Below the pieces are notes generated by a model, which saw only the letters and a program-made list of their open reading frames with translations, was not told the DNA's origin and did no database searches. A stretch of DNA of 64,000 nt, from the NCBI RefSeq assembly GCF_000230735.2, contig NC_019962.1, positions 2,046,001-2,110,000 on the forward strand, in the 5' to 3' direction. The DNA is from Natrinema pellirubrum DSM 15624 (GTDB lineage: Archaea > Halobacteriota > Halobacteria > Halobacteriales > Natrialbaceae). Every line of letters begins with the position of its first letter. The stretch's first letter is position 1. This document shows, one piece after another, positions 21,449-26,254 of the stretch. A program made the translations under genes and the position numbers.

Positions 21449-22621
21449 TCAGAACGCCCGTTTGATCTTCTCGAAGAAGCCTTCCTTCACTTCGATCTCG
21501 TCGCCGCCGGCCTCCGCAAACTCCTCGAGGGCCTCGCGCTGGTCCTCGTTGAGACTCTCGGGGGTGACGACCTGGACTTTGACGTAGAGGTCGCCCTGCC
21601 CGCGGCCGCGCAGGCGGGGCATCCCCTTGCCCTCGAGGCGGAAGGTCTCGCCGCTCTGAGTACCCTGCGGGATCTCGAACTCGGCACCGCCCTCGAGGGT
21701 GGGGACCTCGACGGTGTCGCCGAAGGTGGCCTGCGGGAAGGAGACGGGAAGCCGGTAGCGCAGGTCGTCACCCTCGCGTTCGAACTCCTCGTGGTCGCGG
21801 ATCGAGACGTCGATCAGCAGGTCGCCGCGGGGGCCGCCTTCGGGACTGGGCGCGCCCTCGCCTTCCATCCGCAGCGTCTGGCCTTCCTGAATACCGGCCG
21901 GAACCTCGACGGTCAGCGTCGCCTCGGTGCGGACGTAGCCCTCGCCGCGACACTCGCCACAGGTCTCGGAGTAGATCGTCCCCTCGCCCTCACACCGGGG
22001 ACAGGCCGTCGTCTGCTGGACCCGGCCGAGCGGCGTCTGCTGGACCTGGGTCACCTGCCCGCGGCCCTGACACTCCGAACAGGTCTCGGCGTCGGCCTCC
22101 GGCGGGTGGCCCTCGCCCTCGCAGACGTCACACTCCTCGGGCCGCTCGACGGTGAACTGCTTTTCAGCCCCCTCGTAGGCCTCCTCGAGATCGATCTCGA
22201 GTTCGGTCCGCAGGTCCCGGCCCTTGCGTGGCTGCCGGCGGCCGCGTCCGCCGCCGCCACCGCCGCCGAAGACCTGTTCGAAGAGGTCGCCGAGACCACC
22301 ACCGCCGCCCATGCCGCCACCGCCCATCCCGCCGAACGGGCCGCCGCCCATGCCGCCGGCACCGCCGGCCTGGCTGGCGTCGAAACCGTGTTTCTCGGCC
22401 TGTTCGTAGCGGTCATGACCCATCCGGTCGTAGGCCTCACGTTTCTCCTCGTCGGTTAGGACCTGCTTTGCCTTCTGAATTTTCTTGAATTTCTCCTCGG
22501 CATCGGGGTCGTCGCTGACGTCGGGGTGATACTCGGTGGCCTTCGACCGATACGCCTGTTTGATCTCCTCGGCAGACGCGTCGGGGCTCACGCCGAGAAC
22601 GTCGTAGAAGTCCTCGCTCAT
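21449..22621 (-). CDS. dnaJ: Chaperone protein DnaJ (Hsp40)
   Basis: A 390-residue type I J-protein. It has an N-terminal J domain with the HPD motif (YHPDVSDD), a long Gly-rich linker ([16 protein letters not shown] around residues 85-115), and a zinc-finger region with four CxxCxGxG repeats ([32 protein letters not shown]). The two C-terminal substrate-binding beta domains follow. It delivers unfolded proteins to DnaK and stimulates its ATPase. dnaK lies upstream on the same strand, but separated by a 1.7 kb AT-rich islet encoding a halocin-like precursor, so dnaJ probably has its own promoter. Confidence 0.97.
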
Positions 22622-22990: not shown

Positions 22991-23188
22991 TTATGCTTCA
23001 ACCCACACATACCAGATAACTGCTGCGAATACTACAGCGAATACAAACGAGGTCCCGATAGATTCCGCTACGGACATCCCTCTATAGATGGCAATTACGA
23101 ACGATGCGGAAAAGGTAACGAAAAAATACACTACCGTTTTTTTCACTCTACTAGAATAGAACCCGTCATCTGATTGTTGATCACACAT
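22991..23188 (-). CDS. Small two-helix membrane protein downstream of the halocin-like gene
   Basis: A 65-residue protein from the ATG at 23188. After a charged leader ending in SSRVKK there are two hydrophobic helices, about residues 18-35 (VVYFFVTFSASFVIAIY) and 44-63 (IGTSFVFAVVFAAVIWYVWV); the basic leader suggests a cytoplasmic N-terminus. It starts 72 bases after the halocin-like precursor on the same strand, and no clear promoter of its own is visible, so co-transcription is likely. Base composition is as low-GC as that gene. A role in immunity or export of the peptide is possible but is guilt by association only. An opposing plus-strand frame at 22946-23173 lacks any such pattern. Confidence 0.65.
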   Translation of the reverse strand: MCDQQSDDGFYSSRVKKTVVYFFVTFSASFVIAIYRGMSVAESIGTSFVFAVVFAAVIWYVWVEA

Positions 23189-23260: not shown

Positions 23261-24055
23261 TTAGCAGAATCCGCCTTCTTCACAGAGGTTTTCGTGTTGA
23301 AGACTATCGCTAACGGTACAATCGTTCGGGACTGCAACATGAGCGCAGACTATCGTCGCTACAACACCACAGCCTATTCCGGCTAGAGGCGTCCCAACAA
23401 AGCTGACCCCTGCACAGATAAGCCCCGTATTGGCGCTACATCCAACCCGACACAGTTCCCTCATTATCGTTGTACACTGACCACAACTAACACCGTTCCG
23501 GCCTTGAGGAGTTACAACCCCATCACGATCGCTAGAAGAGGTGGTAATCCTACCATTTTCTAATGTGGCTTCGGTAACTGTCTTCTTTATCTCACCGTTC
23601 TGTAGCCGGATTTCAGTTATTTCGTATGTCTCGTCGGCTATCGACTCCGACATTAACGCTTTAGAGTATGTAACAGATCCATTTTCAAGAGTAAATGTGA
23701 GATCGGCATCGACCGTCGAATCAGAAGAATCTAATGGAAATGAGATTATTGTTCCTGTTCTATCTTCCGTGGATTCACCATCCGTTATTTTATAGACGGA
23801 TGGTTCGTCTAGAATGTCGATCCAATCTTGATTGTCAAAGTACTCCTCATAGGTCAGATACTCGTTTGATTGGCGAACCCTAGACACGAGACTTGTTTTA
23901 TTATGCCTGCCTATTTCTTCTATTTCACCGGTTCGACTGCCTACAGAACCACTACCGATACCACTGAACGTTCCTATAGCAACTGAACTCATTGTAGTAC
24001 TTTTCAACACTTTCCGACGAGTAAGCGGCGACCTGTTTCTGTTGTCTTCCGACAT
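23261..24055 (-). CDS. Halocin C8-like microhalocin precursor
   Basis: A 264-residue protein from the ATG at 24055. Residues 11-30 form a twin-arginine export signal (LTRRKVLKS then a hydrophobic stretch). Residues ~41-185 are an acidic beta-rich propeptide. The last ~75 residues hold ten cysteines at 191, 194, 202, 206, 214, 229, 237, 246, 258 and 264 with a hydrophobic glycine-rich core. This matches halocin C8, a 76-residue secreted archaeal antimicrobial with ten cysteines cut from a similar Tat precursor whose propeptide (HalI) gives immunity. A TATA box at 24080-24088 favours this start over the GTG at 24079. GC content is far below its neighbours, suggesting transfer. Activity is inferred. 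Confidence 0.88.
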   Translation of the reverse strand: MSEDNRNRSPLTRRKVLKSTTMSSVAIGTFSGIGSGSVGSRTGEIEEIGRHNKTSLVSRVRQSNEYLTYEEYFDNQDWIDILDEPSVYKITDGESTEDRTGTIISFPLDSSDSTVDADLTFTLENGSVTYSKALMSESIADETYEITEIRLQNGEIKKTVTEATLENGRITTSSSDRDGVVTPQGRNGVSCGQCTTIMRELCRVGCSANTGLICAGVSFVGTPLAGIGCGVVATIVCAHVAVPNDCTVSDSLQHENLCEEGGFC

Positions 24056-24079: not shown

Positions 24080-24088
24080 TATTTATAT
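24080..24088 (-). promoter_or_regulatory. TATA box of the halocin-like gene
   Basis: The minus strand reads ATATAAATA here, about 28 bases from the ATG at 24055. This is a near-ideal archaeal TATA box, predicting a strong leaderless transcript. Confidence 0.7.
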
Positions 24089-24319: not shown

Positions 24320-26254
24320 TTACTCCTCGTCGTCGTCCTCGAAGTCGACGTCCTCGAAGTCCGCATCGACGAACTCCTCGTCCTCGCCGCCGGCAGCGCC
24401 GGCTTCGGGGCCGGGGTTCGGACCGCCGCCCATGCCGCCCATTCCGGCACCGCCGGCACCTGCAGCGCCGCCTGCCGCACCGCCAGCGCCGCCAGCTGCA
24501 CCGGCACCGGCCTCCTGCTGGTAGATCTGCTTGCCGATCTCCTGCAGCTCCTCGCTCAGGGATTCGGTTGCGGACTCGATGTCGTCGGCGTCGGCTTCGT
24601 TGTCGTCGATCGTCTCCTCGAGATCCTCGATCGCGCCCTCGATGTCGGCGCGGAGATCGTCGTCGACCTGCTCGTCGTTCTCCTCGAGCAGCGTTTCCGC
24701 GCGCTGGATCGTCGCCTCGGCGGCGTTACGCGCTTCGATGCGCTCGCGCTTTTGCTGGTCTTCCTCGGCGTGTTTCTCGGCCTCTTCTTGCATCTTCTCG
24801 ATCTGTTCGTCGGAGAGACCGGCACCGCCCTCGATGGTGATCTCTTCGGTGGTCCCGCTGCCCTTGTCCTCGGCGGAGACGTTGACGATGCCGTTCTCGT
24901 CGATGGAGAACGTGACCTCGATCTGGGGCGTTCCGGCGGGGGCCGGCGGGATGCCGGTCAGGTGGAACTCACCGAGCATCTCGTTCTCCTCGGCCAGTTC
25001 GCGCTCGCCCTGGAAGACCCGGACCTGAACCGTCGTCTGGTTGTCCGCCGCGGTGGTGAAGATCTTCGACTCCTCGGTCGGAATCGTCGTGTTCTTTTCG
25101 ATGAGACGCTCGAAGAGGCCGCCCTTGACCTCGATCCCCAGCGAGAGCGGGGTCACGTCCAGCAGGACGATGTCGTCGACCTCGCCGCCAAGCACGCCGC
25201 CCTGGATCGCCGCGCCCAGCGAGACGGCCTCGTCGGGGTTGACGTTCTTCTGGGGCTCCTTGCCGGTCAGTTCTTCGACCTTCTCGCCGACCTGGGGCAT
25301 CCGCGTCGAACCGCCGACGAGCAGCACCTCGTCGATCTCGTCTTTCTCGTAGCCGGCGTCCTTGAGGGCCTGCTCGGTCGGCTCGACGGTCCGCTCGATG
25401 AGGTCGCTGGTCAGCGACTCGAACTTCGCACGGGTCAGCGACTCCTCGAGGTGGATCGGGCCGTCGTCGGTCGCCGTAATGAAGGGCAGGTTGATCTCGG
25501 TCTCCTTGCGCGAGGAGAGTTCGATCTTGGCCTCCTCGGCGGCGTCTTTCAGCCGCTGGAGGGCCTGTCGGTCGTCGCGGAGGTCGATCCCGTGTTCCGC
25601 CTCGAACTCCTCGGCGAGCCAGTCGATGATGGCCTCGTCCCAGTCGTCGCCCCCGAGGTCGTTGTCACCGTTGGTCGCGACGACCTCGTAGACGCCGCCG
25701 CCGAGATCGAGAATGGAAACGTCGAACGTCCCGCCACCGAGGTCGTAGACGAGGACGGTCTGGTCCTGATCGTCCTCGAGGCCGTAGGCCATCGAAGCGG
25801 CCGTCGGCTCGTTGATGATGCGCTCGACCTCGAAGCCGGCGATCTCGCCGGCGTCTTTGGTCGCCTGGCGCTGTCGGTCCGAGAAGTACGCGGGGACCGT
25901 GATGACGGCCTTCTCGACTTCGTCACCGAGATAGTCCTCGGCGTCGCGTTTGATCTTCTGGAGGATCATCGCCGAGATCTCCTCGGGCGTATACTCCTCG
26001 TCGTCGATCTCGACGGTGTAGTCTTCCTCGCCGATGTGGCGCTTGATCGACTGGATCGTCTTTTCGGGGTTCTGGACGGCCTGGTTCTTGGCCGGCTTCC
26101 CGACGAGTCGCTCGTCGTCGGAGAAGGCGACGACGGAGGGGGTGGTCCGTTCGCCTTCGGAGTTGACGATGATCTCCGGATCGCCGCCTTCCATCACCGC
26201 GAACGCGCTGTTCGTCGTGCCGAGGTCGATTCCGAGAATTTTGTTGCTCGCCAT
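24320..26254 (-). CDS. dnaK: Chaperone protein DnaK (Hsp70)
   Basis: A 644-residue Hsp70. The nucleotide-binding domain shows [13 protein letters not shown] (residues ~8-20), [13 protein letters not shown] and the connect-2 region GGSTRMPQV. The substrate-binding domain starts near [13 protein letters not shown]...[16 protein letters not shown], and the tail is Gly/Ala-rich then acidic (GGMGGG to DFEDDDEE). It binds exposed hydrophobic stretches in an ATP-driven cycle with DnaJ and the exchange factor GrpE. grpE lies upstream on the same strand with a 227-base gap carrying a separate TATA box, so dnaK can be transcribed alone. Full length. Confidence 0.98.

What the first reader, a model, noticed from the sequence alone, without database searches (positions are those of the whole stretch)
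23261..24055. Halocin C8-like antimicrobial precursor between dnaK and dnaJ
The 264-residue Tat-type precursor ends in a domain with exactly ten cysteines spaced 3, 8, 4, 8, 15, 8, 9, 12 and 6 residues apart. As I recall the published 76-residue halocin C8, its spacing is 3, 8, 4, 8, 14, 8, 9, 9 and 6, with similar flanking residues (GCSA, then an ICxG.., IVC). The order of domains (Tat signal, acidic propeptide, Cys-rich peptide) also matches. The primary sequence otherwise differs strongly, so this would be a new family member.
Basis: partly seen in the sequence, partly recalled or inferred. Interest (0 to 1): 0.86.

Follow-up and report, generated by a model that had tools for sequence, protein, structure and literature searches.

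The report
Halocin C8-like toxin with immunity partner
A salt-loving archaeon carries, between two ordinary chaperone genes, a gene for a secreted cysteine-rich antimicrobial peptide precursor of the halocin C8 family, and right behind it a tiny uncharacterised membrane protein that most likely protects the producer; such toxin-plus-membrane-protein pairs turn up throughout the family, which was thought to need only one gene.

Summary
The 264-aa protein has a Tat-type N-terminus and ends in ten cysteines with the stated spacing. Residues 191-264 match TIGR04449 (halocin C8-like domain) at 48.1 bits against a cut-off of 24, so it is a divergent member of that family. The same genome carries three more members, one very close to halocin C8 itself.

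The new part lies beside the gene. A 65-aa two-helix membrane protein (m65, 23188-22991, minus) starts 72 bp downstream. Short multi-helix ORFs sit directly downstream of 21 of 47 non-redundant halC8-like genes, against 4 of 140 control genes. They fall into several families that track the toxin clades, and occur almost only at such loci. In two relatives m65 is intact at dnaK-dnaJ while the toxin gene is reduced to a remnant of its 3' end. In Halobacterium salinarum R1 an IS element truncates the toxin gene while its partner is intact.

Best reading: a two-gene toxin/immunity module, with the HalI-like propeptide known from halocin C8 plus a dedicated small membrane immunity protein that I did not find described. 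Antimicrobial activity, processing and immunity are inferred and untested.

The parts
23261..24055 (-). halC8-like precursor gene, 264 aa
   Evidence: ORF; TIGR04449 48.1 bits vs cut-off 24, E 1.8e-12; dN/dS 0.18 against the orthologue in genome G180
23927..24055 (-). Tat-type N-terminal region, residues 1-43 (TRRKVLK)
   Evidence: twin R conserved in at least 90% of 31 relatives; low-confidence/disordered in the model
23522..23926 (-). propeptide (HalI-like) domain, residues 44-178: N-terminal helix-loop-helix (50-61, 64-76) followed by a beta-rich domain
   Evidence: AlphaFold2 pLDDT mostly 84-98; dN/dS 0.26 for residues 1-185
23498..23521 (-). linker, residues 179-186, presumed processing region
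   Evidence: residues 179-186 below pLDDT 50; the cleavage site itself is inferred by analogy to halocin C8
23264..23497 (-). predicted mature ten-cysteine peptide, about residues 187-264
   Evidence: TIGR04449 residues 191-264; dN/dS 0.048 for residues 186-264; four helices in the model
24081..24087 (-). TATAAAT box 32 nt upstream of the ATG, consistent with a leaderless haloarchaeal transcript
   Evidence: sequence; function inferred
22991..23188 (-). m65: 65-aa two-helix membrane protein, candidate immunity protein
   Evidence: ORF; two hydrophobic segments; helical hairpin 5-35/40-64 in the model; dN/dS 0.14-0.22 against three other species; orphan copies in G004 and G091 next to a hal remnant
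24320..26254 (-). dnaK, conserved flank
21449..22621 (-). dnaJ, conserved flank

Best explanation
The locus is a two-gene halocin (toxin/immunity) module inserted between dnaK and dnaJ. The first gene encodes a folded precursor that is exported by the Tat pathway. An unknown extracellular protease cuts the flexible linker near residues 179-186 and releases a disulfide-rich peptide of about 78 residues that attacks the envelope of related haloarchaea. The N-terminal propeptide keeps the peptide inactive and may, like HalI of halocin C8, bind it. The second gene, m65, encodes a two-helix membrane protein that protects the producer at its membrane. Shown here: family membership of the domain, precursor layout by model, purifying selection on both genes, recurrent and specific linkage of small membrane proteins to this toxin family, and partner retention after toxin loss. 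Inferred: export, cleavage, killing, and that m65 is the immunity protein.
For: TIGR04449 match. Model with folded propeptide, disordered linker and ten-Cys helical domain. Mature part far more constrained than the propeptide, dN/dS 0.048 vs 0.264. Multi-helix ORFs of 45-160 aa within 150 bp downstream on the same strand: 21/47 non-redundant hal genes vs 4/140 control genes, p 2.6e-11; 0.07 expected in dinucleotide shuffles. Partner family tracks hal clade, 0 of 20000 permutations. Several pairs keep hal plus partner while sharing no other flanking gene. Partner specificity: the 125-aa family has 5/5 hits beside hal, and the 68-aa family 5/6 at a hal locus, in a 391-genome sample (with places). 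Toxin lost, partner kept: m65 in G004 and G091 with a decayed hal 3' end, score 53 vs shuffle maximum 26-29; ISH30-interrupted hal with intact 68-aa partner in H. salinarum R1; a hal-less pair of partner genes in G191. [quoted passage not shown]
Against: No activity data. Published halocin C8 needs no second gene: its propeptide HalI is the immunity protein (title of Sun et al. 2005, cited). About 20 of 47 hal loci have no small two-helix ORF within 150 bp by my criteria, including the halocin C8 clade, whose 70-aa partner lies about 1 kb upstream. Membrane partners could serve export or maturation. The G004/G091 toxin loss is probably one event, and m65 constraint between those two is weaker (dN/dS 0.49, few changes).
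Confidence: 0.62

Rival explanations
1. One-gene halocin as published for halocin C8: the propeptide is the only immunity determinant and m65 is unrelated or accessory.
For: Halocin C8 precedent (titles of Sun 2005 and Mei 2008, cited in PMC11509114). The model has a helix-loop-helix at the start of the propeptide (50-61/64-76), as the Mei 2008 title reports for HalI.
Against: Does not explain the strong, family-wide, clade-specific linkage of small membrane proteins, nor their retention after toxin loss.
Confidence: 0.18
2. m65-type proteins help export, fold or process the precursor, or form a second subunit of the toxin, rather than giving immunity.
For: Tight same-strand linkage in about half the loci. 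bPH_2 proteins at some loci have been implicated in transport as well as immunity of leaderless bacteriocins. One clade (L057/L060/L068) shares a larger set of neighbouring genes.
Against: Orphan m65, an orphan pair in G191, and an intact partner beside IS-cut hal are not expected for a maturation factor or co-toxin. The precursor has its own Tat signal.
Confidence: 0.12
3. A secreted disulfide-rich protein with a halocin C8-like domain but a non-antimicrobial role (signal, envelope or adhesion protein).
For: No activity test exists for this subfamily; only about 17-22% identity to the halocin C8-clade precursors.
Against: All ten Cys conserved; patchy accessory distribution, 42 of 391 genomes; AT-rich island; partner retention after toxin loss.
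Confidence: 0.08

Closest known systems
Halocin C8 / ProC8 (Natrinema; 283-aa precursor, 76-aa peptide; PMC11509114)
   Same: Tat precursor, N-terminal propeptide, C-terminal ten-Cys peptide with near-identical spacing. A close relative of it is encoded elsewhere in this genome (L062).
   Different: Only about 17-22% identity over the precursor; longer Cys5-6 and Cys8-9 loops; a dedicated small membrane gene directly downstream.
HalI, the halocin C8 immunity propeptide
   Same: The propeptide occupies the same place and the model shows an N-terminal helix-loop-helix.
   Different: Immunity by this propeptide is untested, and m65 is an additional candidate.
Small membrane immunity proteins of class II and leaderless bacteriocins; bPH_2 proteins of leaderless bacteriocin clusters
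   Same: Short membrane proteins beside the peptide gene; bPH_2 proteins occur beside some halC8-like genes.
   Different: m65 and the 125-, 68- and about 60-aa partners tested match no Pfam or NCBIfam family above cut-off; archaeal; toxin exported by Tat.
Protease-activated halocins HalH4 and HapP (PMC12893001)
   Same: Secreted precursors presumably activated outside the cell by proteolysis.
   Different: Unrelated sequences; the protease for the C8 type is unidentified.

Membership tests
TIGR04449 halocin C8-like domain family | HMM score above the curated cut-off | tested here: met
   48.1 bits vs 24, E 1.8e-12, model positions 1-69 of 69
TIGR04449 halocin C8-like domain family | ten conserved cysteines in order at the C-terminus | tested here: met
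   eight Cys invariant and two at least 90% conserved in 31 aligned members; spacing as in halocin C8 except the Cys5-6 and Cys8-9 loops
Halocin C8 (functional halocin) | Tat-type signal on the precursor | tested here: met
   TRRKVLK; twin R at least 90% conserved; judged from the motif, no signal-peptide predictor was run
Halocin C8 (functional halocin) | folded propeptide separated by a linker from the Cys-rich peptide | tested here: met
   AlphaFold2 model, mean pLDDT 79.7, disordered 179-186
Halocin C8 (functional halocin) | cleavage and release of the mature peptide | not testable with these tools
   needs mass spectrometry of culture supernatant
Halocin C8 (functional halocin) | inhibition of other haloarchaea | not testable with these tools
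   needs an activity assay
Halocin C8 (functional halocin) | immunity conferred by the propeptide of the same gene (HalI) | not testable with these tools
   only placement and modelled helix-loop-helix agree
Known bacteriocin immunity families (for m65) | match to a curated immunity model | tested here: not met
   no NCBIfam hit; only sub-threshold Pfam hits

The most novel reading that the evidence does not exclude
The halocin C8 family is, as a rule, a set of two-gene toxin/immunity modules with rapidly diversifying dedicated membrane immunity proteins (65-aa m65, 68-aa, 70-aa, 115-aa, 125-aa and bPH_2 types). [quoted passage not shown] Even true halocin C8 would have a conserved small membrane partner, the 70-aa ORF about 1 kb upstream. 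Orphan immunity genes would persist in strains that lost the toxin.
Probability: 0.5. Interest if true: 0.72.

Novelty: new variant of a known kind. Interest (0 to 1): 0.58.

Why it matters
Halocin C8 is described as the best-characterised halocin at the molecular level (PMC11509114), and its self-protection has been ascribed to the propeptide alone. A dedicated, clade-matched set of membrane partners gives named candidate immunity genes, including orphans, that can be tested in genetically tractable haloarchaea. They would predict which strains resist which halocin and show how archaeal peptide warfare diversifies. For the window itself it turns an unannotated 65-aa ORF into a testable immunity gene.

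Tried and rejected
Plasmid and phage records: no match to this protein; viral contigs: none for it or for the halocin C8-like precursor, so no evidence of viral carriage. PDB sequence search: nothing. Fold search of the precursor: no E below 0.001 and best VIA Z 5.6, not interpretable as a relative. The family alignment was too divergent for pattern scanning; a single-protein scan named only Natrinema pallidum. Weak matches of m65 (E above 0.01) lie mostly in long ORFs of about 500 aa and were discarded as unrelated membrane proteins. The sigma-70 promoter scan is not meaningful for archaea. The key halocin C8 papers (Sun 2005, Mei 2008, Besse 2017, Kumar 2021) were not read: Mei 2008 was tried and is not held, the others I know only as citations. 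I therefore cannot exclude that a membrane partner has been mentioned there. Four library searches for halocin immunity showed no such report among titles and abstract starts.

Full report
Observation. The gene is real but lies on the minus strand, 24055 down to 23261. It encodes 264 residues with a twin-arginine motif (TRRKVLK) and ends in ten cysteines spaced 3-8-4-8-15-8-9-12-6. The NCBIfam model TIGR04449 (halocin C8-like domain) matches residues 191-264 end to end at 48.1 bits, against a curated cut-off of 24 (E 1.8e-12). That this sequence equals published halocin C8 is my recollection; length and genus agree with PMC11509114.

Where it sits. The gene and a second small gene fill the dnaK-dnaJ gap. 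The gap has 45% G+C in a window of 66.5% and is the only place in the window where 500-bp stretches fall below 48%. Natrinema pallidum DSM 3751 has the same insertion (hal 99.6% identical, m65 identical). A second genus of the same family (genome G180) has it too (hal 80%, m65 57%). Two further genomes of the window's genus have m65 but no hal gene, and 40 other dnaJ-upstream regions fetched from the family have neither; most of those show a short gap (in three of them dnaK was not in the stretch). So it is an accessory insertion. The genome has three further TIGR04449 genes, one very close to halocin C8.

Anatomy and selection. An AlphaFold2 model on 31 relatives (mean pLDDT 79.7) shows a disordered N-terminus, a confident domain from residue 44 to 178 that begins with a helix-loop-helix and continues as beta strands, a disordered linker 179-186, and four helices carrying the cysteines. 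Against the G180 orthologue dN/dS is 0.26 for residues 1-185 and 0.048 for 186-264: the peptide is the strongly guarded part. A TATAAAT box lies 32 nt before the ATG.

The partner. m65 starts 72 bp after the hal stop on the same strand. It has two hydrophobic segments, is modelled as a helical hairpin (moderate confidence, pTM 0.50) and is under purifying selection (dN/dS 0.14-0.22 against other species). It matches no Pfam or NCBIfam family above cut-off. I then asked whether this is general. In 47 halC8-like loci made non-redundant at 80% identity, a 45-160-aa ORF with at least two hydrophobic segments lies within 150 bp downstream on the same strand in 21, against 4 of 140 control genes from the same stretches (p 2.6e-11). 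Dinucleotide shuffles of the downstream DNA predict 0.07. Counting both strands gives 27/47 vs 10/140. The partners form several families, which follow hal relatedness (mean hal identity 0.36 within vs 0.19 between partner families; 0 of 20000 permutations reach it). In L067/L140, L054/L076, L053/L075 and L137 with L186, L079 or L046, hal and partner are kept while no other flanking ORF is shared, so the pair behaves as a unit. Conversely, the 125-aa partner family has five matches in the 391-genome sample, all beside a hal gene. The 68-aa family has six, five of them at hal loci (with places). Other hal loci (L063, L126, L128; similar sequences in L130 and L073) carry bPH_2 proteins. [quoted passage not shown]

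Why immunity rather than export. First, genomes G004 and G091 of the same genus keep an intact m65 at dnaK-dnaJ but lack the hal gene. The DNA just before their m65 aligns with the last codons and stop of hal (score 53 against at most 26-29 for shuffles). The toxin was deleted and the partner stayed; the two genomes probably share one event. Second, in Halobacterium salinarum R1 plasmid PHS3 an ISH30 element cuts the hal gene before its last four cysteines, while the 68-aa partner beyond the IS is identical to that of strain GN101, where hal is whole. Third, genome G191 has two partner genes side by side with no hal gene within the 3.2 kb read. Retention after toxin loss is the usual signature of immunity genes and is not expected of export or maturation factors. 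It is not proof.

What is known. For halocin C8 a single gene is said to direct production and immunity, the propeptide HalI being the immunity protein (titles of Sun 2005 and Mei 2008, cited in PMC11509114 and PMC12893001). The propeptide here may do the same, and both layers could act. The halocin C8 clade itself has a conserved 70-aa membrane ORF about 1 kb upstream, homologous to partners in the sister subfamily. I found no description of these partners in the open library, but the main halocin C8 papers were not available to me.

Limits. Control genes were not matched for base composition (the shuffles address this). Hydrophobicity was scored with a simple Kyte-Doolittle window. Gene starts are first-start guesses. 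All function is inferred.

Verdict.

Noticed in passing
L039 (own genome C1:354391-354606, minus): A fourth TIGR04449 gene in the same genome has an in-frame TAA just before its last residues (reads ...FD*CC); bPH_2 proteins lie beside it (L063).
   Followed up: partly
L062 2831-3256 (minus) and L058 7197-7409 (+): A conserved 70-aa two-helix membrane ORF about 1 kb upstream of halocin C8-clade genes, homologous to partners in another halC8-like subfamily.
   Followed up: partly
L187 3031-5816 (H. salinarum R1 plasmid PHS3): ISH30 interrupts a halC8-like gene and separates it from an intact 68-aa membrane partner.
   Followed up: yes
L156 (genome G403), dnaK-dnaJ gap: Another low-GC insertion (813 bp, GC 0.48) holds an unrelated-looking 83-aa two-helix ORF without a halC8-like gene; the gap may be a recurrent site for small cargo.
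   Followed up: no
L191 1498-2013 (genome G191): Two different halC8 partner families (68-aa and 70-aa types) side by side with no toxin gene nearby.
   Followed up: partly
L057 3115-3870 and 5653-8532: The L057/L060/L068 clade shares further neighbours: a wHTH regulator upstream and large ORFs downstream without Pfam match, perhaps a longer operon.
   Followed up: no
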